The translations under genes were made by a program, and so were the position numbers. The notes beneath the pieces are model-generated. The model was not told the origin of the DNA, made no database searches, and saw nothing but the letters and a program-made list of their open reading frames with translations. Positions 1,729 through 56,640 of a stretch of DNA of 64,000 nucleotides are shown piece by piece. How positions within the stretch are numbered: the stretch's first letter is position 1; each line of letters begins with the position of its first letter. The stretch lies in contig OX457026.1 of the NCBI GenBank assembly GCA_949752745.1, positions 23,997,308 to 24,061,307 of the forward strand. The letters run 5' to 3'. The DNA is from Protula sp. h YS-2021 (taxonomy: Eukaryota > Annelida > Polychaeta > Sabellida > Serpulidae).

Positions 1729-2693
1729 AACAGCTGCGTTCGGCTGCTTATTCCGACAACACCCATGCCGCCTACTCCACCCACACCAAGGCTTTCCTCT
1801 CATTTTGCGCGTTTTTTCGCTGTCGACCTGTCCCCGCTGACACAGACACCCTGTTACGCTACGCGTGTTTCCTGGGCCGCACCCTAAAGCCTCACTCCGT
1901 CAGGTGCTACCTGTCCGCGATCCGCTTCTTACATTTGGAATACGACCACCCGAATCCGACGGAGGACAATTACCGCCTTAAGACACTACTTAAAGGTTTA
2001 GAGGCCAAACGCGGCAGCCCACCAAAGAAAAAACTCGCGTTGTCACTGGATATTCTAGCTCAATTCCTCCACGTACTGGACCTCGACCGGTCACTTGACA
2101 TGTGCTTCTGGGCGGCTTGCTTGGTTGGGTTTTTCACTTTCTTCAGGAAATCCACCCTACTCACGCGTTCACAGGATAGTCACGACTGCCGCAGAGACTT
2201 ATGCCGTCGCGACGTGACCTTCCTCGCCGACGGGGCCCTCGTTCATGTCAAACACACGAAGACCATGCGGAACTTTTGCCATCAACTGGTCGTCCCACTG
2301 CCCCGTATCCCCGACTCCCCACTTTGCCCAGTTTATGCCCTAGGTCGCCTTCTGACCACGACCAAGTCCCCTGAGGACTCCCCTTTGTTCTCATTTAGGC
2401 GCGAAGGCGCCCTGGCCACACTCTCCCATGCGATTTTCGGCGCGTTGCTCAGGCGGAACCTCCAGAGTATCGGACTGGATGACACCCAGTTCAGCGGCCA
2501 TAGCCTCCGCCGAGCTGGGGCCAGCTTCGCCCTGGCATGTGGTCTCCCCTCTGAGGTCATCAAATCACAGGGAGACTGGAAATCGGACGCCTACCTCCGA
2601 TACACGGACGTCCCTCTCGGCTTGCGCCTGGAATGCTCCCGTGTCCTTGGAAGAAATGCCGCAAAAATTCCAATCAACCCCAAGAATACTTAA
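1719..2693 (+). CDS. Ngaro tyrosine recombinase (integrase)
   Basis: The first ATG of this frame is at 1719 and overlaps the pol stop by ten bases (ATGGAGGTAG). An alternative GTG at 1692 has no special support. The N-terminal half resembles a SAM-like core-binding domain (YSDNTHAAYSTHTKAF). The catalytic domain carries the first Arg in FFRKSTLL (2145-2147), a Lys in VHVKHTKT, HSLRRAG (His-x-x-Arg) and the nucleophile Tyr in WKSDAYLRYTD. All residues of the R-K-H-R-W/H-Y set are present, so the enzyme is predicted active. It joins the circular DNA intermediate to the genome. Length is 324 residues from the ATG. Confidence 0.9.
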   Translation: MEVEQLRSAAYSDNTHAAYSTHTKAFLSFCAFFRCRPVPADTDTLLRYACFLGRTLKPHSVRCYLSAIRFLHLEYDHPNPTEDNYRLKTLLKGLEAKRGSPPKKKLALSLDILAQFLHVLDLDRSLDMCFWAACLVGFFTFFRKSTLLTRSQDSHDCRRDLCRRDVTFLADGALVHVKHTKTMRNFCHQLVVPLPRIPDSPLCPVYALGRLLTTTKSPEDSPLFSFRREGALATLSHAIFGALLRRNLQSIGLDDTQFSGHSLRRAGASFALACGLPSEVIKSQGDWKSDAYLRYTDVPLGLRLECSRVLGRNAAKIPINPKNT

Positions 2694-17892: not shown

Positions 17893-20800
17893 TTGATTGA
17901 TTGATTTGTTTAACGACACCGGCAACCCGTTAGGGTCATATTGTGTCGGTTCTGTTGCTATAGGAAGACTCAGTTGAAACTAAAATCAATTAAAATAGAC
18001 ATAACAAGTAGTGTATATTCTAAAACCAACTAAATTCAATTTAAAACTTACTGTACAAGTGTATTTCTTTCAGAAAAGAAATAATTTTACTTGGTCCTAC
18101 CTTTGTAAAAAGGTTTTCATGGAATTCGCACTGTAGTAGCGTGAACGAATGTTCTGAAAATCTGCACAATTGAGTAGAATATGTTTTACAGTCAAACGTT
18201 CTTGACAACCAATGCATTCTGGCGGCGCATCGCCCCTCAAAAGATATCTGTGGGTAATGTATGTATGCCCGATTCGGGCTCTATGCATAACCGTTGTGTC
18301 GCGAATATTGCCAAAAGCTACCTGCTTTTGTCCAACTGTTGGTTGGATTTGTAACAGTTTGTTAGTTCTTTGTTCGTTCCACTTTTGTTGCCAAAGGTTT
18401 TTTACATAGCTTGCGATATGGGGTTTAAAGTCGGAGTATGGTATGAGAAGGTCTGATATGTTGTAGTTTAGCGCCTCTTTTGCTGCTTGGTCCGCAGCTT
18501 CATTACCCGATATGCCCACGTGGCTTGGCACCCAGCAAAACACTACGGATTTTCCTTGTTTGACTGCTCTTTCATAACGTTCTATTAGGTCTGAAATCAT
18601 CGTGTTCGACACCTGCAGATTTTCTAGCTATTGTAGGACCGATAAGGAATCGACACAGATAAGGAACTTTTTGTACCTACTAATCTTGACGATTTCCATG
18701 GCTAGTTGGAGTGCCCGAACCTCCGCGGAAAATATGGAGGAGCCATTTGGTAATCTTGTTTTCAGGGTATTTGATTTTGTAACTATTTTGAGGCAGCAAC
18801 TTTGTTATCGAGTTTAGATCCGTCCGTGTATATGAAACGATGGTGAAGGTAGGTTTCCTTTAACTCAGCAAACCTAGCTTTGAATTCTTCAGCATTTGTT
18901 GCATCTTTGGGATACTTTGTCAGAGTTTTGTCTATGGCGGGTCTTTGTATTTTCCATGTCGGGTATTTCAAAACTTTTGAGTTTGCAATTTGTTCGACTT
19001 TGATTCCAGCATTATTAAGGTGGTTACGGATTCTAGTGCCAAGGGGAAGGATAACCCTAGGGCGTGTGTTTAGGATTTCTGAATGGTCTTTTTCGAACAC
19101 TGCCTTATGGGTGGGGTTTTCTTTATTTGCGCATAGTTTAATTGCATATTGCATTGAGACTTTGATTCGTTGGATATCTAATGGTTGTTCATTTGATTGA
19201 ACCTGAAGGCCTTCCGCAGGTGACGTTCTGAAAGCGTTAAGGCAGAGGCGAAGGCCTTGGTTTTGTATTGGGTTCAACATCTTCAAGTACGAACGCCTGG
19301 CTGATCCGTAGACGATGCTACCATAATCTATTCTAGATCTTATTAATGATCTATAGAGTTTAAATTTAGTACTGGTATCTGCTCCCCAGTCTTGAGCGGA
19401 GACGACTCGTAGCAGGTTGAGTGCTTTTTGACATTTCCTCTTCACCTCTTTTATGTGGGGAATAAAATTTAGCTTCGAGTCCAGAATTAGACCAAGGAAT
19501 TTGTTTTCCTTCACTACATGTATCTTAGTGTTTGATAAGTATAAAATAGGATCATCGTGTTGCTTTCGCTTGTTGCAAAAGTGCATGGAGACTGTTTTGG
19601 TTTACGAAAATTTGAAACGATTTTGGTCAGCCCATTTTTGAAGAGAGTTTATATTTTGCTGGAGGCGACGCTCGATGAGATTCATATTCTCACCCCTTGC
19701 AGACATAGCAAAATCGTCTACAAACAGTGAGCTGTCTATTCCCTGTTTAGTTGCGCCTTTGATACTATTGATTTTGATTAGAAACAAGAGAATTGATAGA
19801 ATACAGACTTGAGGATAGCCCTCTTCTTGCTCAAAATAGTCGGAGAAGATGGAACCGAGACGGACTTTAAATCGCCTATCATTTAAAAAACCTTCAATGA
19901 ATTCTGGGAGACGACCTCGTATGCCAAGGTTGTAGAGGTCTTGCATGACCTGGTGTTTCTAAGCCGTGTCGTAAGCTTTTTCTAAATCGAAGAAAACAGT
20001 GACGACATGTTCGTTATTGATAAAACCTTCTCTAATAAATGATTCGAATCTAACCAGGTGATCTATGGTACTTCTTTCTTTTCTGAAGCCGCTTTGGATG
20101 TCAGTAAGTAGGTGATTTTTCTCTAAATACCAAATTAGTCTTGCGGCTATCATTCGCTCCAGTGTTTTGCACAATGAACTTGTCAGAGATATTGGGCGGT
20201 AATTTTGGGGATTAGTAGAATCCTTATTGGGTTTTGGAATTCGTATGATGGTGGCTTCTTTCCATATTTCAGGAAGGTTTCCTGTAGTCCAAACTTGGTT
20301 GAGTAATTCTAGGAGGACTTCAAGGGTTTCCTCAGGTAGGTGTTTTAAAACCTTCTAGTGAAGGTCATCTGGTCCGGCAGCTGAGTCATGTGAGTTATGT
20401 ATAGCGTCTTTCAACTCATTCGGAGTAAAGGTGCTATTGTACTCTTCCAAATTATTTGAGGTAAAGTCTATTGGTATTTGTTCTTTAATTTCTTTTATTT
20501 GACGGAACCCAAGAGAGTAATTTTCAGATGAAGAGTTGAACTGAAAGGTTCTACCAAAGGTATTTGCTATTTCATAGGGTTTTGTGATAGTTTGGTTGTT
20601 TGTAGTGAGGTGGTTTATGGGTTTTGAGATGATTTTACTAGATATTTTTCGAATTATCTCCCATACTTTTTTGGTTGAATTGTTTTTGTTCAATTTGGAG
20701 ATATATTCCGCCCAGGTTTGCTTTTTGCTTGCTTTGATGGTTCTGCGTGCTTCGGCACGTAGCCTTTTGTATTCAAGTTTGGTACTATTGTCCGGGCTGA

Positions 20801-21830
20801 TGTAGAATTGGTGCAGAGCTGTTTTTCGCATGGCTATTGCTTTTTTGCAATCGTCGTTAAACCAAGGTTTTTGTTGTTTTTTAGGATTTCCGGAAGTTTT
20901 AGGTATGGTTTTTTCCATGATTGCCTGGATTAGAGCCGTAAAAAATAAAATTGGGTCGTCGTCATGTGTAAACTGGTTGATTTTAATGGCCTTTTTGCAG
21001 AGTTACTGGAACAGTGACCAATCTGCTTTGTGGAATTTCCACTTTGGTATTCCTTTTTGTTGCTGTGGATCTAGTGGTTTTAATAAAATGGGGTAGTGGT
21101 CGCTGCCATAAGTGTCGTCCAAGACTTCCCATTCAAAATCTAAAAACAAATTCCTAGATGCCATTGCAAGGTCGATAGAGGTTTTTGAACCAGTGCCAGG
21201 ATGTAGGTATGTAGGAGATTTATCATTGTAAAGTGAGAGATTGTGGAAATTTAGTAGGTTTTCAATTAGTTTACCTTTGTGGTCGGTGCTTGTATTACCC
21301 CACAGGTCTCTATGTGCATTGAAGTCGCCTAAAAATAGAATAGGTTTTGGTATTTGGTTAATCAAGTCATTAAGTTCTTCTGGTTGGGGTTTGGAGGGTG
21401 GTGGTAGGTATATGTTGCAAATGGAAAAAGTTTTCTTCATCGTAACACGAACTGCAGTTGCTTGCAGGTTTGTATTTAATTTGAGTTCACTTTGAATAAC
21501 GTTGTTTCGGATTAAGGTAGTGATTCCGCCATCACTACCTTAATCCAAAAAACCAAAAATGTTATTGGCATTTTTGCTTTAGGGAGTGTAACCGGTTAAA
21601 TTTGGTGGGTAAATATCAGTACCGTATGTTTCTTGGAGGCAAAAGATGGACGGGTTATACTGCTGGCTCAGAGTTAATAGATCTATTTGGTTGGTCCAAA
21701 AACCTCTAATGTTCCAGTGAACTATTGTCATTAGGTACTGTTGACTCTAGGTCTGCTGATTGCCACTCGTGGTGGCTTGGGATGGACAGGGAGGGAGTGA
21801 AGGGAGACCTTACGCACATCTTCCGTAGCT
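17893..21830 (-). mobile_element. Nimb/I-type non-LTR retrotransposon, 5'-truncated and decayed
   Basis: Minus strand: the tail of a gag-like ORF (STVPNDNSSLEH then stop) overlaps the ORF2 start at 21731. The 3' end carries a GTTAAACAAATCAATCAATCAATT tail near 17893-17920, a tail type I associate with mollusc Nimbus/I elements. The 5' edge near 21830 is approximate. The element lies between the LRR and Atos genes. Confidence 0.8.
18097..21731 (-). pseudogene. LINE ORF2 remnant: APE endonuclease, reverse transcriptase, RNase H
   Basis: The frame starting at ATG 21731 runs to about 18783, then shifts by one for the rest. Endonuclease signals are IVHWNIRGFW, ICNIYLPP, LFLGDFNAH and GSDHYPILL. 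RT signals are SGFRKERST, TVFFDLEKAYD and SLFVDDFAM (the F-A/V-DD box); the usual GxPQG box is altered to GYPQV. RNase H signals are FIYTDGSKLD, WVPSHVGISGNEAAD and a C-terminal Cys/His segment (PPECIGCQERLTVKHILLNC). In-frame stops occur at 21579, 21540, 21000, 20355, 19959 and 19602, mostly single-base changes. No indel is evident across the first 2.9 kb, so decay is recent to moderate. Confidence 0.85.
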
Positions 21831-25843: not shown

Positions 25844-28800
25844 GTCAGTAATATATTTTGAATAATGTTGATAAGATTATGATATGAAATAATTTCGAAA
25901 CTGGTAATCGAAGAAGTAGAATTGTGTGCGACAGTATGCCTTTTAGCTGTTGTTTGATTCCTTACTTTGGGTTTACATGAAGATTAGCTAAGGATTTTAA
26001 AGTGGAGTGAAGAAGATTACCAAGAACTAAACAGGCACATGTGGCTATATAATTGCAAAATTATGCGCATGCATGGAAATGTAGCTTTATTTGTGTGATC
26101 TACAGTGTTATTTCTTAAGCTTATTTTGAAGCAGCTGTTTATTAAATTGAAACAAAATAAAACAACACTTCGTTACAGTGCAAAAGAAAAGAATCAATTT
26201 CAAGAGAGATACGCAGTCTGGGGAAGAACAATGTCCCGGTCTGCATTGAAGTTGTATTGCTTCCAGACTGTGACAAACATGACCATAAACTTGATATTTC
26301 GCATGGCATTATAAAAGGCCAGTATATTCTTTTGGAGCAGTGGAAATTCCAGGTTCTCCCAAAGAGGTATGCGAGTTCAGCTCTTCGCCCATCGGTTAAA
26401 ATAAGTTTTGGATGTAATTTAGCTTGTACATGAACAAAATTCAAAACCATATCTTCTGTATTTGGACGTGTAAGTTTTCAACAGTACAATCGCTTATAGT
26501 GTTGATGCATCATTTTTTGCCGGCGAGAGGAGAAAAGCTTCCTCCTTGACATACTTAAAAAATACCAAACTTTCATTTCCTCCGAATGGTTTTGTCTCTT
26601 AAATAAAATTCAGTAAATATCACACTGACAAAATGTTTACAAAAGCAATAGTGAACGAATTGCAAAGTCGAAACATATTCATACCAGAATCTGTACTTCT
26701 GTTGCAAATAACAATAATTAAAAAACTTGAAAAATGGGACGCATCGGGATTGATTGATGCTCTGACAAATACCCTGACACGTGGAGGCGGGAAAGACATG
26801 TTCAGTAAACTTCAAATCCAGACCACTAGAATATTTAATGATCATTATTTTTGCACTCGTTAATTTTACTTATTACAATCGTGTTGGAAAATTATTTCTT
26901 ATTTAAAACTTACCGAGTCCCAAGATTGTTTGTGATTTTTTTTTCAGAGGAGGAGAACTTTCCGTGGAAATCCCATCCTTGTTCCAGGCTGTCAAATCCT
27001 ACCTCTATTTTTCCCAGCTCAGTGCCTGGCTCAACCAAACACATGGCACAGCTCCTCGAGCAGTAGAATACAGGTATTGGCTGTAACAAATATCCGTTGT
27101 CTTATCTTAAATAAGAAATATTCTAAAACACGATAGTTAGAGTTTTCAAGAAGCACATAAAATTTTGCGTATTTCGTTTTTGTTAATTTAAAGTAACAAA
27201 AAAAAAAAAAAAAGACGAGCATGTTGGTGGTTGTTGTGACAAACTGACTGCCGTAATTAACAAAAATGACACTTTATTGAACATTTTCAAAACATTACAA
27301 TGTCAGATGAGGTCTGAACATTTCCCTTCTTTGCACAGGGTGTCACCCCCTGCAGAATTCTGTACAAGCACATTCCAAGAATCTCCAGAGCTACATCGCT
27401 TCCCTATCTGTACGCAACAGCACTATGCTATCCAAGTTACCGTCGCGGCCCTACCTCGCCAAAGCAAGCTCCTTAGTCTCTCTTGTTCGGAGTCGGCTGC
27501 CTTAGCCAATGTTGCACCCATTCAGCGGCGGCGGATATCCTCTCCGGTAGCTGAAGGCGCATGCGCGGCCCCCAGATCCAGTCCGTGCTCGAGCCTCAGT
27601 CCCAGATCTGGATCGCCGGGCCTGGCCTGCTGCTCCACATATGTTGGTCACCCGGATGTAAAATGGCGGGAAGAGGGCGGGGATTGCGTTATGGTGCAGC
27701 AGTTGTATGAACACAGGGAAATGCCACGCTCAAAGACTTTGAAAGATTTCCATAGCGATGACTCAAGTGATTGCTCTGACTGTTCAACGCTGACAACACG
27801 AGTTAAAACGTCAGCGAGTCCGTTATCTATGGGATCGCAGAGGGGTTTCCCGCCATCCCCTTCAACGCAGTCGTACGTAGAAAAAACGGCATCCCCAAAG
27901 TTCTACCTGCCGTATGTGCAACCTCCTATTGAGAGAATATCTAGTCCATCTTCCAGCAGTGATTCAAGTCAAAATGGCAATAAAGAGTCTATTTTTAGCT
28001 CTCACAGACCTTCACCACCTATAGATTACCAACCTTGCCGCGATGGCACGGATTCCCTGAGTCGTAAACTGGCCACAAAGCTGAGCTTTGAACCACTTCC
28101 GGCCTTTGAATTGGAGGCCCATGTCAGCAAATCTGTCCAAATAGAGATACCTCCAAATGTAAAACACAAATTGTCTGATAAATCCACTGATAGCTGTGGT
28201 GATAACAACACTGCCAAAGAGTTGGGAAGACTGAAGCTTGAACTGCAGACTGTGGATTTGAATTTGAAAACTGATACGCCTCCGAAAGTGGACACAAGTA
28301 ATGCAAATACAGGAAACGAATGCTCACATGGTGCTCGTGGCTATGCATCGAATTCTCAAGGGATTTCTAATGGTAGCAGTGAACCGTCTTTCACAAATGG
28401 AGCTTTACCTCAGTCACTGTCAAAACCAGCTTCTGGTGGTGCCATTCAAAACGGAGCCACGGAAAAGAATGGATTTTACAGTGCCGAAAAGGATGCTATG
28501 CGAAATCGATTCGAGGTGCCGAAAACTCCTGAAAAACCTCTCAAGTCTATCATGACCAGACATCTTCAAAATATCCAGTCAAAACAGGTAAATGCCCTCT
28601 GATGTTGTGTCCTGCTCATTGCTGGGATGTGATTTTAGTCTCGCAGGTTTAACTCGTAAGAGGTGTACCACCACATTCCTTTGCCCGTGTCTGAAGGGGC
28701 CAGTGTATCAGAACGATGACGTCATATGGGGTCGTTCCTTTTCAATTGCTAATTTGAAGACACAGCGCTGGAGAACTGTGTGTGGTCAGGACCTTCTTTA

Positions 28801-37200: not shown

Positions 37201-39817
37201 GAATGGGCGCATCGAGCCTTGCGGGGCCGTGGAAGGCTTCTGTGTGGACATCGGCGCCAGCGGCTCGTTCTGCCCGAGTCACGTGACCCTGCCCATGACG
37301 GCTTTCTTCTTTAAGCTGTCCGAGGACAACGCGCCATCGCCCTACCTCGTGAGTATTTTTTAACGCTGCATCTTAAAAACGCCGCGTTTTTGGACATGTA
37401 AGAAAGTATTTTATTACATGATCTGGGCGTCGGACAAAAGAATGTAGGTGGTCCAAATATCGCTCAAGCGTTGTGTACTCGTGTCATATCCCGCAAAAAA
37501 CACAGAGCTTCCCAATAAGAATAGCTAAACGTAAACTTTAAACTGCCTTAATTTTGTCACAAGTTTCTTGTTGTTTCGCAAAATGAAGTTTAAATATACA
37601 AACAGAAGCAAACATATGACCTCTGTGCTAGTAAAAGTAAAAGTGAAAGAACCTGGTTAAAAAGGACGACACGGCAGTCAGATGTTAAAGTGACATGCAC
37701 TTTTCCCGGACTTTGGTTTTGTGTAATTTCGCACCGCCCTTTCGTAAAGGGAACGTTTGAATGTATTGTGTGTTTTGACAGGGTCACGTGAGCTTGGAAT
37801 CGGTGGGGAAGCGAGGCTACTCGTTTGAATGTATTGTCTATGTTTTGACAGGGTCACGTGAGCTTGGAATCGGTGGGGAAGCGAGGCTACTCGTTTGAAT
37901 GTATTGTGTATGTTTTGACAGGGTCACGTGAGCTTGGAATCGGTGGGGAAGCGAGGCTACTGGTTTGAATGTATTGTGTATGTTTTGACAGGGTCACGTG
38001 AGTTTGGAATCGGTGGGGAAGCGAGGCTACTCGTTTGAATGTATTGTGTATGTTTTGACAGGGTCACGTGAGCTTGGAATCGGTGGGGAAGCGAGGCTAC
38101 TGGTTTGAATGTAGTGTCTATGTTTTGACAGGGTCACGTGAGCTTGGAATCGGTGGGGAAGCGAGGCTACTCGTTTGAATGTATTGTCTATGTTTTGACA
38201 GGGTCACGTGAGCTTGGAATCGGTGGGGAAGCGAGGCTACTCGTTTGAATGTATTGTGTGTGTTTTGACAGGGTCACGTGAGCTTGGAATCGGTGGGGAA
38301 GCGAGGCTACTCGTTTGAATGTATTGTGTATGTTTTGACAGGGTCACGTGAGCTTGGAATCGGTGGGGAAGCGAGGCTACTCGTTTGAATGTATTGTGTA
38401 TGTTTTGACAGGGTCACGTGAGCTTGGAATCGGTGGGGAAGCGAGGCTACCACGTGCCGAGCAAAGGCACGATACAAGTGGTACGACCGCGGCTGTTATA
38501 CCCAGCTCTTTGTTGTTTTGAAAGTGTTAATGTTGTCAGTAGCCTGAATAAAAAAAAAAGAAGAAGAAAATAAAAGATAGAAAAAAGACAAATGTAGAAC
38601 TTGATTATAGCAGAAATGCTTATAAATGAACGTCATATTTCTAGAGTAATTCAATTCTCACAATTATAACTATTTAATTTTAATATAATTGTTACTGAAA
38701 TAGATATCGAAAGATATATTTCCTTGTATCATATATTTATTGTATCAATTCCAAACATAGTTTTGATTCTTTAAGTTTTCTTTCATTTCAGACATTGTTT
38801 AACCCAAATAAGACAGTCGTCAAAATGTTCGTGTTAACGTACGACCTATCGGACATGCCGCCCAGCTGCACGACGTTTCTGCGCCAGCGCACGCTCTACA
38901 GGCCCGTGCCGCACAGTGCCAGCGACACGACCGACGCACCCCACTACCTCCGATACCTCATCCACTTACGGTAAACATGCCTCATCCATTCACGTGCCCC
39001 GCTGCCCCCGATACCTCATGCACTTACGGTAAACATGCCTGATCCATTCACGTGCCCCAATACCCATGATACCTCATCCACTTACGGTAAACATGTCTCA
39101 TCCATACACGTGCCCCACTGCCCATGATACCTCATCCACTTACGGTAAACATGCCTCATCCATCCACGTGCCCCACGGCCCCCGATACCTCATCCACTTA
39201 CGGTAAACATGCCTCATCCATCCACATGCCCCGTGCCCCCGATACCTCATCCACTTACGGTAAACATGCCTCATCTATTCACGTGCCCCACTGCCCCCGA
39301 TACCTCATCCACTTGCGGTAAACATGCCTCATCCATCCACGTGCCCCACTGCCCCCGATACCTCATCCACTTCTGGTAAACATGCCTCGTTTATTCACGT
39401 GCGCACCTACCTCAGGTACCTCACCTACTCGCAGTAAACAAATGTGCGACATTTAGACGAGCGACATTTAGTTAAAATTTTCTTTTAGTTAAAATTTTCA
39501 CCATTTTCTCTTCCCATTGATTTGAAAGAAACTGATGAAGTTGTAAATGTTGTCGATGATGCTCACAATGAAAAAAAAGCATGTTTGCAGTTTCCTGATT
39601 TTTAATTATTGAATTTTGACTGATGATGAGAATTGACGGCCTTAATGTTTTGGTTTACAGGGTAGCAAGCTCGAAATCCAGGAAGCTGTACTTGCATTCC
39701 GATATTCGAATGATTTTTGCCCGCGACAAGTTCGAGTACGATTCTCGTATTGCAAATTACGAATATCGATCGCTGACTGAAGGGCCTGTCAACCCAAAGT
39801 ATTCACCAAAAAAGTGA
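25676..39817 (+). CDS. atos: Atos homolog (FAM214/ATOSA-ATOSB family), 874 aa, 11 coding exons
   Basis: Exons: 25676-25843, 26179-26366, 26948-27073, 27339-28587, 30401-30523, 33567-33640, 35106-35238, 37190-37348, 38412-38480, 38792-38970 and 39661-39817. All splice sites are GT-AG and phases join to 2625 nt. Fly Atossa is a nuclear regulator that raises mitochondrial metabolism in invading macrophages. Conserved here: SELWCQLGLLVIESR near the N-terminus; NNVPVCIEVVLLPDC; LFQAVKSYLYFSQLSAWL; a long Ser-rich linker (about 161-577); GLPLQSSPAPIKR-FDFDD (Atos conserved domain, DUF4210); STSAPASTNSLLGNFEESLLNGR; and the C-terminal domain ending NPKYSPKK. The start ATG lies 11 nt inside an exon that opens at 25665, so at least one 5' UTR exon is upstream. 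Length is within the family range. Confidence 0.95.
26179..26366 (+). CDS. atos: Atos coding exon 2
   Basis: 188 nt after CGTTACAG. It encodes NNVPVCIEVVLLPDC and YILLEQWKFQVLPK, matching the conserved N-terminal region. The donor is GTATGC. Confidence 0.9.
26948..27073 (+). CDS. atos: Atos coding exon 3
   Basis: 126 nt encoding GGELSVEIPSLFQAVKSYLY then FSQLSAWLNQTHGTAPRAVEY. This FSQLSAWL block is one of the best-conserved family signatures. The donor is GTATTG. Confidence 0.9.
27339..28587 (+). CDS. atos: Atos coding exon 4, long Ser-rich exon
   Basis: 1249 nt from the acceptor CTTCTTTGCACAG to the donor CAG|GTAAAT. The protein is mostly disordered, with acidic Ser clusters (HSDDSSDCSDCSTL, SSPSSSSDSSQNGN) and a basic end KPLKSIMTRHLQNIQSKQ. 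Activation domains lie in the comparable part of fly Atossa. Its open frame also runs 62 nt into the preceding intron and 15 nt into the following one, but splice phases favour these borders. Confidence 0.9.
29277..29323. repeat. (TAAA)n/(TAA)n microsatellite in Atos intron 4
   Basis: AAATAAATAAATAAATAA followed by AATAATAATAATAATA. A G-poor, T/G-rich tract also lies at 28800-28846. Confidence 0.8.
30401..30523 (+). CDS. atos: Atos coding exon 5
   Basis: 123 nt encoding GAAAKSRVPSEEERITFRKA to HSTGLPLQSSP. It is the start of the Atos conserved domain; the donor is GTAAGT. Confidence 0.9.
30608..31058. repeat. (TTCC)n array broken by AAAC, Atos intron 5
   Basis: About 450 bp of TTCC tetramers interrupted at irregular steps by AAAC (TTCCAAACTTCC). 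One strand is almost pure pyrimidine. Long open frames on both strands (LPSF / GRKE repeats) are artefacts of the 4-bp period. Confidence 0.95.
33567..33640 (+). CDS. atos: Atos coding exon 6
   Basis: 74 nt encoding APIKRLGRTSFDFDDNLTCA then KAIK, continuing the SSPAPIKR block across the splice. The acceptor is TGTTTGTAG and the donor GTAAGT. Confidence 0.9.
34082..34270. repeat. (GATA)n microsatellite, Atos intron 6
   Basis: Long AGATAGAT runs with a few variants (GATCGAT, AGATATAGA), flanked by GATGGATG units up to about 34350. Confidence 0.95.
35106..35238 (+). CDS. atos: Atos coding exon 7
   Basis: 133 nt encoding SLSCVNLEEYKSTSNEEEME and the family signature STSAPASTNSLLGNFE. The donor is GTTAGT. 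Confidence 0.9.
37190..37348 (+). CDS. atos: Atos coding exon 8
   Basis: 159 nt, GC-rich, encoding ESLLNGRIEPCGAVEGFCVD and IGASGSFCPSHVTLP, ending APSPYL. The donor is GTGAGT; phase 0. Confidence 0.95.
37757..38450 (+). repeat. 70-bp minisatellite containing the exon 9 acceptor and exon start, ten copies
   Basis: GGGTCACGTG recurs exactly every 70 bp at 37781, 37851, 37921, 37991, 38061, 38131, 38201, 38271, 38341 and 38411. Each unit holds TGTTTTGACAG, the exon 9 sequence for GHVSLESVGKRGY, and 31 bp of intron. Copies differ by only a few bases. Exon use of an earlier copy meets a TGA in the next unit because 70 is not a multiple of three. Confidence 0.95.
38412..38480 (+). CDS. atos: Atos coding exon 9, fed by a ten-copy acceptor array
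   Basis: 69 nt encoding GHVSLESVGKRGY then HVPSKGTIQV; the donor is GTG|GTACGA. Its first 39 nt and acceptor are the last of ten tandem copies (37757-38450). Only this copy continues into the correct exon end. Confidence 0.9.
38792..38970 (+). CDS. atos: Atos coding exon 10, followed by a donor array
   Basis: 179 nt encoding TLFNPNKTVVKMFVLTYDLS to HYLRYLIHL, phase 2. The donor TTACG|GTAAAC is the first of a tandem series of near-identical copies in the next intron. Confidence 0.95.
38952..39414 (+). repeat. 58-bp minisatellite containing the exon 10 end and donor, eight copies
   Basis: GATACCTC starts at 38952, 39010, 39068, 39126, 39184, 39241, 39299 and 39357, period 58 (once 57), with a degenerate ninth start at about 39415. 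Each unit repeats the exon end (CTCATCCACTTACG) and the donor GTAAACATG. Confidence 0.95.
39661..39817 (+). CDS. atos: Atos last coding exon
   Basis: 157 nt after TTGGTTTACAG encoding VASSKSRKLYLHSDIRMIFA to GPVNPKYSPKK and TGA. This is the conserved C-terminal end of the family. Confidence 0.95.
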
Positions 39818-48489: not shown

Positions 48490-50016
48490 GTATATAATTG
48501 TCTAAGCAATATAAATATTACAGTTATCAAATTGATACTGTAAGTACCAATAAAACTTGTTAAAAAACAACTGATGCTGTATACTCATGCCGTGTACTCA
48601 TGCTTAATTGGCAAAATTTCAAGGTCTATTTAACATAGAAATATAACTGAATTCCAAAACAAAGTAGAGGAGGAGCAAAAAGAGTAAAGTATGATATTAA
48701 ACGCAGTGGATTTAAAATAGTAAAGATACAATAATAATGCCATCCTAACGGTATATCTCTGTCATTATTTGAGCCAAAGCTTTAGATGCCCATAAAATCC
48801 TGATGCTGAAGTTTTGACTCAGTTTGAGGAAGTGGGTATTATCTTCGAATCTAATTACAATGCTACCAGTCGACAGTCAACAGACAATCCATTGATGCAT
48901 ATTCCAAGCTCAAGGAAGAATACAAGGGATTAAAACTTGATAATAAAATATAAATTTATGTTATCACTGGAAATAAATTCTTGTGAATCATTTACAGAGC
49001 CCTACCTGTTCAAACTGTCACGTTAAACTGCTTCAAAAGTCCCTGACTGAATATCAGGGTTCTACAAGCAATTCAAAACTTACAAATATCTAACCCTCAA
49101 ATTATAGACCTTATAATAAGACATCCTTGTCCTATAAGACTGGCAAGGAACTGACTTTTAACTGTTCAAAGCAATGTAGGAATTTAAAAGTAATAGGTAG
49201 AGTCACCAAAGAGACGCTAAACAATAAGTGTTCGGACTTGCTTATTCAATATTTCACTTACTGAATGCCATATTTTTTAGATACGCAAAAGATCTTGGCA
49301 GAATAGGCGATACAGTTACCCACATGCTAGGCCGTAAACTGGATATTACGCTTTGAAATCTGAATCATTAAATGTTTGAAAAACGTTATTTTTACATGTC
49401 AAACGGCATGTAATATCAGGTACGCTGACTGATTTTATGGTAACCAAAATAAGATTAGCAATTACATTTTCATGGCCTTCCATAGCATTTATAATTATAT
49501 GAAGATTATTAAAAATAAATAAACGAAAAAAGAAACTTTATAAGAAATAAGGAATATTTTTAATCGTTCCCGAAAAAAAGATTTCAGAGCAATCGTTCAT
49601 GATATGTTGATGCAATTCTCTTTAACACTTAGGATTACATTTCACGAAAGTGTCACGATTTCAGCATCTATCAGAAAAGAGAATACGATCTTGGCATATT
49701 TACCACCGAGTTCGCTGCACCTGCAACATGGCGGGCGAAGTGATAATTCTAATAAATCAGTGCAGTGAGCACCAACGAAACATGCCTTTTTATTCGTATT
49801 ATTACTGTTTACTTTTTCGCGCTAAAGTGCTACTAAATTCCGAAATACAAGTTTTCCTTATACTTTTTCTGCGTTCTCATTTCATTTGTACTGTATAAGA
49901 TCGAGGTAGAATTTCTCAGCGAAATGAATTTTACACTTGAATATACATTACTATAGTACAGGGTATATTTCATGAAGGATATAATATTGGTTAACATAAT
50001 AGAGCTCATCCTCCTT
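48490..50016. other. Intergenic DNA left of the foldback element, no gene seen
   Basis: AT-rich, with no repeat of note and no ORF with a recognised motif. It ends with CTCCTT, the left target duplication at 50011-50016. Confidence 0.4.
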
Positions 50017-50490
50017 AGTAGTATGAAAACGGGGCTTCTACTGCACTTTGTGACGTCATACTGTCTGGAAATGACGTCATAGCGTCTGGACCGGAAGTGC
50101 TGTCTAGACCGGAAGTGACGTCATCATGTCTGGACCGGAAGTCATGATAAGCGTTAGGATAGGCGCGACCATCTGTGACGTCATCATGACGTCATACTGA
50201 GATGATGCTGTCTGGAGCGAAAGCATACTGTCTGGAAGTGACGTCATCATGTCTGGAGCGGATTTCTGGCCCACTTTATGACGTCATACTGTCTGGAAGT
50301 GACGTCATCATGTCTGGAGCGGATTTCTGGCCCACTTTATGACGTCATACTGTCTGGAAGTGACGTCATAGCGTCTGGACCGGAAGTGTTGTCTGGAGCG
50401 GAAGTGACGATAAGCGTTAGGATAAGCGCGGCCATCCATGAGGTTATAATGACGTCATGATGACGTCATACTGTCTGGAGCGAAAGTCTG
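50017..50490. promoter_or_regulatory. CRE-rich terminal block of the left arm (mirror 55190-55727)
   Basis: About twelve perfect TGACGTCA palindromes lie in under 480 bp, set in repeats of CTGTCTGGA-CGGAAGTG. TGACGTCA is the known CREB/ATF binding site. Function here is inference. Confidence 0.6.
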
Positions 50491-50505
50491 GAGCGAAAGT
50501 TGTTT

Positions 50506-51436
50506 GGCTACGCCTTGTTTACGCCATAGTTACCTTAGTTACGCCTTAGTTGCGCCTTCGCTACAGTGGTTACACCTTAGTTACGCCTTAGTTACCTTAG
50601 TTACGCCTTGATTACGCCTTAGTTACTCCTTAGTTACGCCTTAGTGACGCCTTGGTTACAGTGGTTATACCTTAGTTACGCCTTAGTTACCTTAGTTACG
50701 CCTTGGTTACGCCATAGTTACCTTAGTTACGCCTTAGTTACGCCTTGGTTACAGTGGTTACACCTTAGTTACGCCTTAGTTACCTTAGTTACTCCTTAGT
50801 TACGCCTTAGTTACCTTAGTTACTCCTTAGTTACGCCTTAGTTACCTTAGTTACTCCTTAGTTACGCCTTAGTTACAGTAGTTACACCTTAGTTACGCCT
50901 TAGTTACCTTAGTTACGCCTTGGTTACGCCTTGGTTACAGTAGTTACACCTTAGTTACGCCTTAGTTACCTTAGTTACTCCTTAGTTACGCCTTAGTTAC
51001 CTTAGTTACTCCTTAGTTACGCCTTAGTTACAGTAGTTACACCTTAGTTACGCCTTAGTTACCTTAGTTACGCCTTGGTTACGCCTTGGTTACAGTAGTT
51101 ACACCTTAGTTACGCCTTAGTTACCTTAGTTACTCCTTAGTTACGCCTTAGTTACCTTAGTTACGCATTAGTTACGCCTTGGTTACAGTGGTTATACCTT
51201 AGTTACGCCTTAGTTACCTTAGTTACGCCTTGGTTACGCCTTAGTTACCTTAGTTACGCATTAGTTACGCCTTGGTTACAGTGGTTATACCTTAGTTACG
51301 CCTTAGTTACCTTAGTTACGCCTTAGTTACGCCTTAATTACCTTAGTTACGCCTTAGTTACCTTAGTTACACCTAAGTTACGCCTAAGTTGCGCCTTAGT
51401 TACATCTTGTTTGCGCCTTAGTTACCTTAGCTACGC
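50506..51436. repeat. GTTACGCCTTA satellite of the left arm (mirror 54245-55175)
   Basis: About 930 bp of 11-bp units GTTACGCCTTA alternating with GTTACCTTA, with GTTACAGTGGTTACACC spacers at intervals, giving higher-order blocks of roughly 60-130 bp. The mirror block in the right arm shows the same order. Confidence 0.9.
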
Positions 51437-51779
51437 AAAAACGAGATAACTTTTGCTGTAGTTGATCGATTTGCATGAAAATTTTACCGTTTGATTCAGT
51501 TTTATATCTAGTTTTAACATTAAGTGATCACAGGCTATTTACGCCGGTGGTTGTATGCATCATGGATTCACCTTAAAAGTTTTTAAACTTAAAAGTAAGA
51601 TAACTTTCGTTATGGTTGACCGATTTGAATGAAAATTTTACCATTGGATTCAGTTTGATATCTTAGTTTACAGTAGTTTGCATAGGTAGTTGTTGGAATG
51701 GCGCGCGCCCACCATTCAAACATGTGTTTGAATTATTTTTACGTCAAACTATTGTTCAACAAGTTGTTTAGCAATTGTA

Positions 51780-52090
51780 CAACAATTGTTCAACAAGCTG
51801 TTGTTGAACATGTTCAACATGTTGTTGAACATGTTCAACATGTTCAACATGTTCAACATGTTCAACAACATGTTCAACAAGTTGAACATGTTCAACATGT
51901 TCAACATGTTCAACAACATGTTCAACATGTTCAACATGTTCAACAACATGTTCAACAACATGTTCAACAAGTTGAACATGTTCAACTTGTTCAACATGTT
52001 GTTGCACAAGTTGAACATGTTGAACATGTTCAACATGTTGAACATGTTCAACTTGTTCAACAACATGCTGTTTAACAAATTGTTCAACAA
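51780..52090. repeat. AACATGTTC palindrome array of the left arm (mirror 53585-53915)
   Basis: Runs of a 9-bp unit TTCAACATG in both orientations, building many nested palindromes (GTTGAACATGTTCAAC). The perfect p53-type decamer GAACATGTTC occurs about six times. Open frames of HVQHV or NMFN repeats in it are artefacts. Confidence 0.9.
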
Positions 52091-52439
52091 GTTGTAGTTC
52101 AAACAAAGAAAAAACAAGACATATGTTGAATAGGTTTATTAATACATTTAAATACACTTAAATACACTTAAATACATACAGCTTAAATCTATAACAATAT
52201 TATAGCATTTATTGATTTACAAAGTCTTTATTATAATGTTTAGTCAAATAAGTCTATTTTTCTTCATCTGCTTCACTCGTTAAAATCAGCAATTTTTACA
52301 AGTTTGGCATTTTTAACGAGTTACACACCATATTTTGATTTCATCTAAGTAGCATAAAAGGAAGAGTGAGACATGCATTTCATCCATATCAAACAGCAAT
52401 AAATTCTGCTGAGTCAGTTTTTGATAAAGCATGCGCCTG

Positions 52440-52689
52440 TTCCAATGACGTTATTATGACGTCATAATGATGACGTAATAATGACGTCATAATGATGACG
52501 TCATAATGACGTCATGACGTTAAACTCCCCTAGGCATAGACAGCATGTTCAACAACATGTTCAACAACATGTTCAACAACATGTTCAACAACATGTTGAA
52601 CATGTTCAACATGTTGTTCAACAAGTTGTATATAAGGCTACGTTTAAAGGCTTTTTAATCATTTGAAAAGTGCATGTTGAACCGAAAGG
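52440..52689 (+). promoter_or_regulatory. Promoter of the foldback element's gene
   Basis: Four perfect TGACGTCA and three near-matches lie at 52444-52520. Four AACAACATGTTC units and one GAACATGTTC lie at 52545-52610. A TATA box TATATAA (52629-52635) is 55 bp before the ATG. The upstream motifs are the same two that fill the arms. Confidence 0.7.
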
Positions 52690-53427
52690 ATGTATAAATG
52701 CAACATTTGTTTAAAATCTTACAATTGGCCACAAAGTCTTAAAAGGCACTTAAAGAATGCTCACACTTCAGAAGAAGAAGAATTGGAGATAGATGTGGAA
52801 AACCCTGTAAAACCACCTATCACTGAAACTTTAGATGAGTCTTCTATGGAAAGTCAAAGCGTCAACATGACTGAAAAGAATGCACATGCTTGTACAGAAT
52901 GTGGTGCATTATACAACAGTCAAGAAGCTTTGTTCAAACATATGGAACATTGTGTTGAGGGTGATGATGACGGCAGCTCTGAAAGTGAGACAGAAACAGA
53001 CTCTGAAAGTGAGTCAGAAACAGACTCTGTTTGGTGTGATATGGTTCAAGAAGTCTACGATGAATATGATAAGAAATTTCAAGAAAAGGTTTCAGAATAT
53101 GAAGAACAAGGGCTTGAAGATGCGCGTGAAATAGCAAGTGATGACTTTCGACCCATTTATAAGCGTCGACTTAAACAACTGTTTATGAGACTATTCAAAT
53201 ATGCCCAACGTCTACAACAAAACGAACATTATGAAACCATTTTAGAAGACTTCAATTACTTTGTTGATGAAAAACATTACGAGTATTCAAAGGCATTAAA
53301 GGCGGCTATAAGAAGAAACGATGCATTCTTTGAAGAGCTTCTAGATGAGGAGGAGGAAGATGAAAGCAGTGACGAAGAAAGTGATATGGATGCCAGTGAA
53401 CAGAGTGAAGCAGATGAAGAAAAATAG
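52690..53427 (+). CDS. Zinc-finger/acidic protein of the foldback element, 245 aa
   Basis: An intronless ORF from ATG 52690 with a TATA box just upstream and AATAAA soon after the stop (about 53449). Residues 2-25 form a C2H2 finger (CNIC, 12 residues, HLKNAH). Residues 67-88 form a second, C2HC-like one (CTECGALYNSQEALFKHMEHC). An acidic Ser/Glu stretch follows (about 91-113), then a helical domain rich in Tyr/Arg/Lys (PIYKRRLKQLFMRLFKYAQR, about 154-205) and a Glu/Asp/Ser tail. The last eight codons lie in the right arm. No transposase motif is visible. It may bind the arm repeats or act as a transcription regulator; that is inference. I do not recognise the family. Confidence 0.8.
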   Translation: MYKCNICLKSYNWPQSLKRHLKNAHTSEEEELEIDVENPVKPPITETLDESSMESQSVNMTEKNAHACTECGALYNSQEALFKHMEHCVEGDDDGSSESETETDSESESETDSVWCDMVQEVYDEYDKKFQEKVSEYEEQGLEDAREIASDDFRPIYKRRLKQLFMRLFKYAQRLQQNEHYETILEDFNYFVDEKHYEYSKALKAAIRRNDAFFEELLDEEEEDESSDEESDMDASEQSEADEEK

Positions 53428-55727
53428 ACTTATTTGACTAAACATTATAATAAAGACTTTGTAAATCAATAAATGCTATAATATTGTTATAGATTTAAGC
53501 TGTATGTATTTAAGTGTATTTAAGTGTATTTAAATGTATTAATAAACCTATTCAACATATGTCTTGTTTTTTCTTTGTTTGAACTACAACTTGTTGAACA
53601 ATTTGTTAAACAGCATGTTGTTGAACAAGTTGAACATGTTCAACATGTTGAACATGTTCAACATGTTCAACTTGTGCAACAACATGTTGAACAAGTTGAA
53701 CATGTTCAACTTGTTGAACATGTTGTTGAACATGTTGTTGAACATGTTGAACATGTTGAACATGTTGTTGAACATGTTGAACATGTTGAACATGTTCAAC
53801 TTGTTGAACATGTTGTTGAACATGTTGAACATGTTGAACATGTTGAACATGTTCAACAACATGTTGAACATGTTCAACAACAGCTTGTTGAACAATTGTT
53901 GTACAATTGCTAAACAACTTGTTGAACAATAGTTTGACGTAAAAATAATTCAAACACATGTTTGAATGGTGGGCGCGCGCCATTCCAACAACTACCTATG
54001 CACAAACTACTGTAAACTAAGATATCAAACTGAATCCAATGGTAAAATTTTCATTCAAATCGGTCAACCATAACGAAAGTTATCTTACTTTTAAGTTTAA
54101 AAACTTTTAAGGTGAATCCATGATGCATACAACCACCGGCGTAAATAGCCTGTGATCACTTAATGTTAAAACTAGATATAAAACTGAATCAAACGGTAAA
54201 ATTTTCATGCAAATCGATCAACTACAGCAAAAGTTATCTCGTTTTTGCGTAGCTAAGGTAACTAAGGCGCAAACAAGATGTAACTAAGGCGCAACTTAGG
54301 CGTAACTTAGGTGTAACTAAGGTAACTAAGGCGTAACTAAGGTAATTAAGGCGTAACTAAGGCGTAACTAAGGTAACTAAGGCGTAACTAAGGTATAACC
54401 ACTGTAACCAAGGCGTAACTAATGCGTAACTAAGGTAACTAAGGCGTAACCAAGGCGTAACTAAGGTAACTAAGGCGTAACTAAGGTATAACCACTGTAA
54501 CCAAGGCGTAACTAATGCGTAACTAAGGTAACTAAGGCGTAACTAAGGAGTAACTAAGGTAACTAAGGCGTAACTAAGGTGTAACTACTGTAACCAAGGC
54601 GTAACCAAGGCGTAACTAAGGTAACTAAGGCGTAACTAAGGTGTAACTACTGTAACTAAGGCGTAACTAAGGAGTAACTAAGGTAACTAAGGCGTAACTA
54701 AGGAGTAACTAAGGTAACTAAGGCGTAACTAAGGTGTAACTACTGTAACCAAGGCGTAACCAAGGCGTAACTAAGGTAACTAAGGCGTAACTAAGGTGTA
54801 ACTACTGTAACTAAGGCGTAACTAAGGAGTAACTAAGGTAACTAAGGCGTAACTAAGGAGTAACTAAGGTAACTAAGGCGTAACTAAGGAGTAACTAAGG
54901 TAACTAAGGCGTAACTAAGGTGTAACCACTGTAACCAAGGCGTAACTAAGGCGTAACTAAGGTAACTATGGCGTAACCAAGGCGTAACTAAGGTAACTAA
55001 GGCGTAACTAAGGTATAACCACTGTAACCAAGGCGTCACTAAGGCGTAACTAAGGAGTAACTAAGGCGTAATCAAGGCGTAACTAAGGTAACTAAGGCGT
55101 AACTAAGGTGTAACCACTGTAGCGAAGGCGCAACTAAGGCGTAACTAAGGTAACTATGGCGTAAACAAGGCGTAGCCAAACAACTTTCGCTCCAGACTTT
55201 CGCTCCAGACAGTATGACGTCATCATGACGTCATTATAACCTCATGGATGGCCGCGCTTATCCTAACGCTTATCGTCACTTCCGCTCCAGACAACACTTC
55301 CGGTCCAGACGCTATGACGTCACTTCCAGACAGTATGACGTCATAAAGTGGGCCAGAAATCCGCTCCAGACATGATGACGTCACTTCCAGACAGTATGAC
55401 GTCATAAAGTGGGCCAGAAATCCGCTCCAGACATGATGACGTCACTTCCAGACAGTATGACGTCATAAAGTGGGGCAGAAATCCGCTCCAGACATGATGA
55501 CGTCACTTCCAGACAGTATGCTTTCGCTCCAGACAGCATCATCTCAGTATGACGTCATGATGACGTCACAGATGGTCGCGCCTATCCTAACGCTTATCAT
55601 GACTTCCGGTCCAGACATGATGACGTCACTTCCGGTCTAGACAGCACTTCCGGTCCAGACGCTATGACGTCATTTCCAGACAGTATGACGTCACAAAGTG
55701 CAGTAGAAGCCCCGTTTTCATACTACT
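53403..55727 (-). repeat. Right inverted arm (2325 bp)
   Basis: Reverse complement of the left arm. The main difference is one extra copy (three against two) of a 61-bp unit near 55341-55463. Deduced translations of 51698-52075 and 53606-53983 are identical over 125 residues, showing how close the arms are. The arm begins inside the ORF, 25 bases before its end. Confidence 0.95.
53449..53454 (+). terminator. Poly(A) signal of the element gene
   Basis: AATAAA about 22 nt after the stop codon, with a second AATAAA near 53468. An inverted copy lies in the left arm. Confidence 0.6.
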
Positions 55728-56247
55728 CTCCTTTATGTTAAGGATTTACAGTTCCGGTACTGATTAGAACTGTATCTCACTTCAGACCTATATTCTATAT
55801 ATTTAGGTAGGTACTCAAAATAAGTCAACTGTGGTGCTGTTGAAATGTTTTATATTCGTGAATTTGAATATTTCGTTGCTGAGAAACTGGTGGTAGATAA
55901 AATAATTGTATGCGTCAATCGACTATTAACCCAGTGTATTAAAACGCTCTCAATCAAATATCTGCACACATGTTTGAAGAAATAACATATTCGCAGCTCT
56001 ATGTGTTGCATGCTTTCATCATATCCATGCAACGGGCCTGTTTCACGGCCACAAGGCGTGAAACGGGCCCGTTTCATGGGTACGAGGCATGAAGATAGCC
56101 TTTCCAATCTAAGCTGTGCTTTTAACCTTTCTATGCAGAAATTGTTTCCGCATGCCTATAAATTTGAAAAAAGAAACCTTTTGAAGAAAATTGTACTACT
56201 CCCCCATTAAAAAATAGAACACTTTGCATTATAATTAAAATCGAAAC

Positions 56248-56640
56248 AACATCTGCACGGGTGGGAGGTATGAAACAGGCCCGTTGCATGGTCAGAGGGC
56301 ATGCAGAGAGCCTTTCCAATGAAAAGCTCAGAAAGAAACATTGGAAACAACATCTGCATGGGTGGGAGGTATGAAACGGGCCCGTTGCATGGTCAGAGGG
56401 CATGCAGAGAGCCTTTCCAATGTAAAGCTCAAAAAGAAACATTAGAAACAACATCTGCATGGGTGGGAGGTATGAAACGGGCCCGTTGCATGGTCAGAGG
56501 GCATGCAGAGAGCCTTTCCAATGTAAAGCTCAAAAAGAAACATTGGAAACAACATCTGCATGGGTGGGAGGTATGAAACGGGCCCGTTGCATGGTCAGAG
56601 GGCATGCAGAGAGCCTTTCCAATGTAAAGCTTGTAGGGCT
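56248..56640. repeat. 101-bp tandem repeat, four copies
   Basis: TGAAAC(A/G)GGCCCGTTGCATGG recurs at 56271, 56372, 56473 and 56574. Units are almost identical and contain GGGCATGCAGAGAGCC and AACAACATCTGCA. Confidence 0.9.

What the first reader, a model, noticed from the sequence alone, without database searches (positions are those of the whole stretch)
50011..55733. Foldback transposon with 2.3-kb arms, 6-bp target duplication and Polinton-type ends
Seen: exact inverted ends AGTAGTATG...CATACTACT, CTCCTT on both sides, arms of 2262 and 2325 bp, a core of 1124 bp and a single gene. Known: Polintons/Mavericks make 6-bp duplications and have AG...CT ends. Inference: a non-autonomous Polinton-class element that lost the whole replication and capsid set but kept one regulatory-type gene and grew very long satellite arms. 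I know of no described family with this plan.
Basis: partly seen in the sequence, partly recalled or inferred. Interest (0 to 1): 0.92.

Follow-up and report, generated by a model that had tools for sequence, protein, structure and literature searches.

The report
Foldback element with Maverick-type ends
A 5.7-kb mobile element carries one zinc-finger gene between two almost identical 2.3-kb inverted arms and ends like the virus-like Maverick/Polinton transposons, so it is probably a passenger that moves with their machinery, but the host genome could not be searched for other copies or a helper.

Summary
Its ends, AGTAGT...ACTACT, are the commonest published end motif of vertebrate Mavericks, which also make 6-bp duplications; IS3EU/GingerRoot, also 6-bp, has mostly TA..TA ends. 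No polymerase, integrase or capsid gene is seen, so it is not an autonomous Polinton; I read it as a passenger mobilised by one. New here: the right arm begins inside codon 238 of the gene, so the left arm holds an orphan copy of the gene's 3' end, pointing to arm growth by copying one end onto the other; and two motifs of the arms (TGACGTCA, AACATGTT) recur clustered upstream of the gene. The gene has five distant relatives; its helical part matches no Pfam family above cut-off. Decisive tests (copies, empty sites, a full-length partner) could not be run: the genome search did not complete in 13 tries.

The parts
50011..50016 (.). left target-site duplication CTCCTT
50017..50022 (+). left end motif AGTAGT = (AGT)2
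   Evidence: matches the Maverick end motif in PMC8097293
50017..52278 (+). left inverted arm, 2,262 bp
   Evidence: 0 mismatches with the right arm over 2,262 aligned positions
50051..50468 (+). outer block of the left arm: 12 copies of TGACGTCA, 4 of CCGGAAGT, 61-bp tandem units
50509..51425 (+). 31-bp tandem array, 29.5 copies
51802..52067 (+). array with 21 copies of AACATGTT
52254..52278 (-). orphan copy in the left arm of the last 25 bp of the gene, stop codon included (its 3' region lies further out)
   Evidence: 53403-53430 equals the reverse complement of 52251-52278
52279..53402 (+). core, 1,124 bp, between the arms
52457..52514 (+). four TGACGTCA upstream of the gene
   Evidence: at most 1 in any of 20,000 random 411-bp blocks outside the element
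52554..52615 (+). six AACATGTT upstream of the gene
   Evidence: none in the window outside the element
52629..52635 (+). TATA-box-like TATATAA, 61 bp upstream of the ATG
52690..53427 (+). ORF without interruption, 245 aa: two C2H2 zinc fingers, acidic linker, conserved helical domain, acidic tail
53403..55727 (-). right inverted arm, 2,325 bp; begins inside codon 238 of the ORF
53449..53454 (+). AATAAA polyadenylation-type signal, 22 bp after the stop codon (others at 53468 and 53541)
53619..53882 (-). AACATGTT array of the right arm
54258..55174 (-). 31-bp tandem array of the right arm
55722..55727 (-). right end motif ACTACT = (ACT)2
55728..55733 (.). right target-site duplication CTCCTT

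Best explanation
It is a recently inserted, non-autonomous mobile element of the Polinton/Maverick mobilisation type. Shown: exact ends (AGT)2...(ACT)2, a 6-bp target duplication, no mismatch between the aligned 2.3-kb arms, one open gene with a TATA-like box and polyadenylation-type signals, and none of the Polinton enzymes. Inferred: a full-length Polinton elsewhere in the host genome supplies a protein-primed DNA polymerase, which starts at the repeated AGT triplets by a jumping-back step like that of adenovirus (3'-GTAGTA ends), and an integrase that joins the linear copy to a staggered 6-bp target. The arms grew inwards because one end was copied onto the other: the right arm takes in the last 25 bp of the gene, its polyadenylation region and the satellite arrays, and the left arm holds the orphan copy, so copying ran most likely from right to left; tandem slippage then lengthened the arrays. 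The C2H2 protein most likely binds a motif that the arms share with its own promoter (TGACGTCA or AACATGTT) and acts as the element's own regulator or end-binding factor; that step is the least certain.
For: Ends and 6-bp duplication as in 5'-(AGT)2//(ACT)2-3' Mavericks (against PMC8097293); a set six-base end has a chance of about 1 in 4,096, or 2 in 4,096 for the two common Maverick motifs, and AGTAGT is not frequent in the window (14 hits, 16 for its complement). IS3EU ends are TA..TA, GingerRoot ends mostly so, and Ginger ends TGTNR with 4-bp duplications. Repeated triplets at a protein-primed end and jumping-back in adenovirus: PMC4974454. Arm copying: arm boundary inside codon 238. Recent insertion: 0 mismatches between arms, open frame. 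Shared motifs: TGACGTCA 12 in the left outer arm, 4 upstream of the gene, 6 in the other 58 kb; AACATGTT 21, 6 and 0; 0 of 20,000 random blocks reach the upstream counts. Gene family: four relatives aligned at 49, 51, 39 and 23% identity, a fifth by profile, hhalign 98.5%, same start MY-C in P0001 and P0003.
Against: One locus only; no other copy of the ends or the gene in the window, and the genome could not be searched. No polymerase or integrase is encoded, and no partner is known. The motif comparison is with vertebrate Mavericks; I saw no ends of invertebrate ones. Arms exceed the 46-1,447 bp given for intact vertebrate Mavericks. Identical arms may also come from conversion rather than youth. 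Motif copies are tandem duplicates and not independent. Nothing links the gene family to Polintons: no relative in viral contigs.
Confidence: 0.7

Rival explanations
1. A cut-and-paste DNA transposon derivative of another or undescribed class that makes 6-bp duplications, resembling Galileo or Foldback in its arms, whose AGTAGT ends are coincidence.
For: Long, internally repetitive arms are known from Foldback and Galileo; Galileo is a P-superfamily element with 7-bp duplications whose arms grow by tandem units and by recruiting further sequence (PMC3573991 passages). IS3EU/GingerRoot also make 6-bp duplications.
Against: IS3EU ends are TA..TA and GingerRoot ends TA..TA or TG..CA; Galileo duplications are 7 bp. 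A chance match to a named six-base end is about 1 in 4,096.
Confidence: 0.17
2. The 245-aa protein is itself the mobility factor (a new kind of end-binding or priming protein), so the element is autonomous or nearly so.
For: It is the only gene, open, with TATA-like and polyadenylation-type signals and conserved in distant relatives.
Against: Pfam finds only C2H2 fingers above cut-off; Foldseek finds nothing at E 0.001 or better in viral or solved structures, though the model is weak, pLDDT 63.7. No catalytic signature is recognised.
Confidence: 0.05
3. A local inverted duplication or an assembly artefact, not a mobile element.
For: Only one locus is known, and arms without mismatches are what palindromic artefacts show.
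Against: Flush 6-bp duplication, 2-kb flanks without similarity to each other, an end motif known from Mavericks, and a 61-bp and a 2-bp difference between the arms, which argue against one read folded back on itself.
Confidence: 0.04

Closest known systems
Maverick/Polinton (vertebrate Mavericks, PMC8097293; section 7 and passages seen)
   Same: 6-bp target duplication; ends 5'-(AGT)2//(ACT)2-3'; terminal inverted repeats
   Different: 5.7 kb instead of 12.7-24.6 kb; arms 2.3 kb instead of 46-1,447 bp; none of the polymerase, integrase, ATPase, protease or capsid genes
Galileo / Foldback of Drosophila (PMC3573991; passages seen)
   Same: very long arms with internal tandem repeats; unequal unit number in the two arms; arms extended by recruiting further sequence
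   Different: Galileo has a P-superfamily transposase and 7-bp duplications
Tlr elements of Tetrahymena (PMC4028283, PMC10120064, PMC5182062; passages seen; tandem repeats in their arms are recalled, from no call)
   Same: Polinton-related; once proposed as non-autonomous Polinton derivatives
   Different: 15-20 kb class of virus-like elements with a capsid gene
Transpovirons (PMC3671162; passages seen)
   Same: small linear DNA with few genes, a zinc-ribbon gene among them, associated with a larger partner
   Different: 6-8 genes, plasmids associated with giant viruses, not chromosomal insertions of this kind
IS3EU/GingerRoot (PMC10045372; passages seen)
   Same: 6-bp target duplication
   Different: TA..TA (GingerRoot occasionally TG..CA) ends

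Membership tests
Polinton/Maverick | 6-bp target-site duplication | tested here: met
   CTCCTT on both sides; feature from PMC8097293
Polinton/Maverick | conserved end motif (AGT)2//(ACT)2 or (AG)3//(CT)3 | tested here: met
   AGTAGT...ACTACT; motif, vertebrate elements
Polinton/Maverick | terminal inverted repeats | tested here: met
   longer than the 46-1,447 bp given for intact vertebrate Mavericks
Polinton/Maverick | protein-primed DNA polymerase, integrase, ATPase, protease and capsid genes | tested here: not met
   only one ORF of 130 aa or more in the element, a C2H2 protein; hence not filed as a Polinton, only as Polinton-type in mobilisation
Polinton/Maverick, non-autonomous derivative | terminal sequence shared with a full-length element of the same genome | not tested
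   The genome search gave no answer in 13 tries; the end 27-mer and 20-mer have 0 hits in viral contigs, a collection that may leave out this genome
IS3EU/GingerRoot | TA..TA (GingerRoot occasionally TG..CA) ends | tested here: not met
   ends are AG..CT; feature
Galileo (P superfamily) | 7-bp duplication and P-type transposase | tested here: not met
   6 bp; no transposase found by Pfam in the only gene; feature
Ginger1/Ginger2 | TGTNR ends and 4-bp duplication (5 bp in TDD-4 and TDD-5) | tested here: not met
Foldback-type element (structural class) | very long, internally repetitive inverted arms around a small core | tested here: met

The most novel reading that the evidence does not exclude
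A chromosomal satellite of Polintons: a minimal element that uses a Polinton's polymerase and integrase through (AGT)2 ends, but keeps a DNA-binding protein of its own whose target motifs fill its 2.3-kb arms and its promoter, so that the arms work as binding arrays (for feedback, origin enhancement or competition with the helper). The C2H2/helical family would then mark a class of such satellites.
Probability: 0.2. Interest if true: 0.85.

Novelty: new variant of a known kind. Interest (0 to 1): 0.62.

Why it matters
Polintons are placed at the core of the evolution of several groups of eukaryotic DNA viruses (PMC6431247, passage). A 5.7-kb element with only the ends and one gene would show how little their machinery needs in cis (six terminal bases plus arms), explain how foldback arms can arise outside cut-and-paste families, and be a natural probe of protein-primed mobilisation in eukaryotes. 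The orphan gene end in the left arm shows that, and in which direction, an arm was copied.

Tried and rejected
Rejected: IS3EU/GingerRoot, Ginger and Galileo as the class, by ends or duplication length. Local duplication or artefact, by the flush duplication and arm differences. RNA features: no Rfam family at gathering score in the window; no tRNA.

Led nowhere: viral contigs with the ends, two arm repeats and the gene family (0 hits; 460, 113, 600 and 2 pattern matches, none confirmed; all 8 scans used); bacterial and archaeal contigs (323 pattern matches, none confirmed); phage records (no match); a structure model of low confidence and fold searches without a hit at E 0.001 or better; solved structures by profile (76 matches, 60 shown, nearly all zinc-finger proteins); PHROGs for 4 of 6 family proteins (a family of unknown function on residues 1-35 of the window protein, 7.9e-6; weaker hits for P0003, among them an FmdB-like regulator at 0.0036; none for P0004 and P0005; not pursued); a third protein search with P0004 found only itself. 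In one search only the 7,986 candidates sharing most words were scored, and P0001, a row of the query alignment, was not listed; P0002-P0004 are rows of the query too, so only P0005 is new there. The readings TGACGTCA = CRE/ATF site, CCGGAAGT = ETS site and GAACATGTTC = p53-type half-site are recalled and untested; the loose half-site pattern has 6 hits in the left arm array, 1 upstream of the gene and 19 in the rest of the window and was not pursued.

[quoted passage not shown] none holds any of six phrasings of non-autonomous or miniature Polinton/Maverick; 2 hold Polinton, non-autonomous, terminal inverted repeat and 6-bp; 7 hold foldback, transposon and Polinton, of which I saw passages of two; 72 hold at least 4 of 5 broader terms, of which 20 were listed and I saw passages of three. 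So absence from print is only weakly supported. In all I saw passages of ten papers and one whole section of one; none was read whole.
Full report
What is there. The finding is correct to the base. A 5,711-bp insertion, 50017-55727, is flanked by CTCCTT on both sides. Its two arms, 2,262 and 2,325 bp, are inverted copies with 0 mismatches over 2,262 aligned positions; they differ only by one 61-bp tandem unit and 2 bp, both extra in the right arm. The terminal 22 bases occur twice in the window, at these two ends, where 100 shuffles give none. In the window this is the only inverted pair found with a flush, non-palindromic 6-bp duplication (controls and other lengths are told under the observation check). 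A blastn of left arm plus core (E 0.01, low-complexity filter on) and a tblastn of the gene and its relatives (E 1) found no other copy in the remaining 58 kb.

Anatomy. From the end inwards the left arm has an outer block with 12 TGACGTCA sites, 4 CCGGAAGT and 61-bp units; a 31-bp array of 29.5 copies; about 320 bp outside the arrays; an array with 21 AACATGTT; and the region of the gene's 3' end; the right arm mirrors it. The core holds a 411-bp upstream region with four TGACGTCA, then six AACATGTT, then TATATAA, 61 bp before the start codon of a 245-aa ORF; AATAAA follows 22 bp after the stop. The order from outside to inside, TGACGTCA then AACATGTT, is the same in arm and promoter. Outside the element the window has 6 TGACGTCA and no AACATGTT, and none of 20,000 random 411-bp blocks reaches the upstream counts; copies in a tandem array are not independent, so this states clustering, not a probability.

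How the arms grew. The right arm starts at 53403, inside codon 238 of the ORF. The left arm therefore carries, in reverse, the last 25 bp of the gene with its stop codon and the polyadenylation region, for which no gene is present on that side. The simplest reading is that one end, with the piece of gene next to it, was copied onto the other, from right to left. This is inference from the anatomy, but it does not depend on the class of the element. Recruitment of further sequence into arms, and unequal tandem units in the two arms, are described for Galileo (PMC3573991, passages).

Which class. Intact vertebrate Mavericks have 6-bp duplications, and the commonest Maverick ends are 5'-(AGT)2//(ACT)2-3' (PMC8097293, passages and section 7). 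The element has exactly these. Of the classes I could check in print, IS3EU has 6-bp duplications but TA..TA ends, GingerRoot likewise with occasional TG..CA (PMC10045372, passages); Ginger has TGTNR ends and 4-bp duplications (PMC2836005, passages); Galileo has 7-bp duplications. Dada, recalled as another class with 6-7 bp duplications, was not checked. Repeated triplets at the ends are what a protein-primed system uses: adenovirus starts on the inner of two 3'-GTA triplets and jumps back (PMC4974454, passages). That Polintons do this at (AGT)2 is my inference.

What it lacks. No polymerase, integrase or capsid gene is seen in the element: the only ORF of 130 aa or more is the C2H2 gene, and every other ORF of 60 aa or more within it translates repeats or overlaps the gene. 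By the defining gene set it is not a Polinton; by its ends it should be a substrate of one. A non-autonomous derivative of Polintons was once proposed for Tlr elements and then doubted (PMC4028283, passage), so the idea is not new; searches for six phrasings of it found no paper (the library holds open-licence papers only).

The gene. Two C2H2 fingers (Pfam 1.3e-8), acidic stretches and a conserved helical C-terminal domain; the five relatives too match only zinc-finger families above Pfam's cut-offs, or none. The relatives are P0001 (46% over 89%), P0002 (60% over 42%), P0003 (34% over 96%) and P0004 (18% over 62%), and P0005 by profile. P0001 and P0003 start at the same MY-C as the window protein, which suggests that the ORF is complete. 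The profile of the window protein with P0001-P0003 matches that of P0004 and P0005 at 98.5% probability over 158 columns, the helical domain included; part of the match is acidic sequence. The contigs are short (longest 871-3,554 bp) and unnamed, so hosts and neighbours are unknown. The structure model was weak (pLDDT 63.7; residues 121-160 best) and fold searches gave nothing at E 0.001 or better. Zinc-finger or zinc-ribbon genes are known in virophages and some Polintons (PMC3671162, passages), but no homology to this family was shown.

What could not be done. The decisive tests need the host genome. The host is not identified; the window holds retroelement genes and looks like an animal genome, but that is an impression.

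Verdict. A real, probably young foldback element with Maverick-type ends and one conserved gene: a new variant of a known kind. Polinton-type mobilisation is likely (0.7); the regulator role of the gene is a guess worth testing.

Noticed in passing
window 136-2693 (+): Reverse transcriptase/RNase H ORF (RVT_1, 2.5e-20) overlapped by an ORF with a weak phage-integrase SAM-like match (4.8e-4, below cut-off): looks like a DIRS/Ngaro-type retroelement with a tyrosine recombinase (type name recalled).
   Followed up: partly
window 18097-21440 (-): Pieces that look like a LINE-type element; one ORF (21003-21440) matches Exo_endo_phos_2 (7e-24), two other ORFs given to Pfam had no match.
   Followed up: partly
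window 37754-38450: Ten copies of a 70-bp tandem repeat at 97% match.
   Followed up: no
window 56243-56631: 3.9 copies of a 101-bp tandem repeat, 97% match, about 500 bp to the right of the element; no similarity to its arms was found.
   Followed up: partly
window 27277-28602 (+): 441-aa Ser/Pro-rich ORF without Pfam match, possibly a host exon.
   Followed up: no
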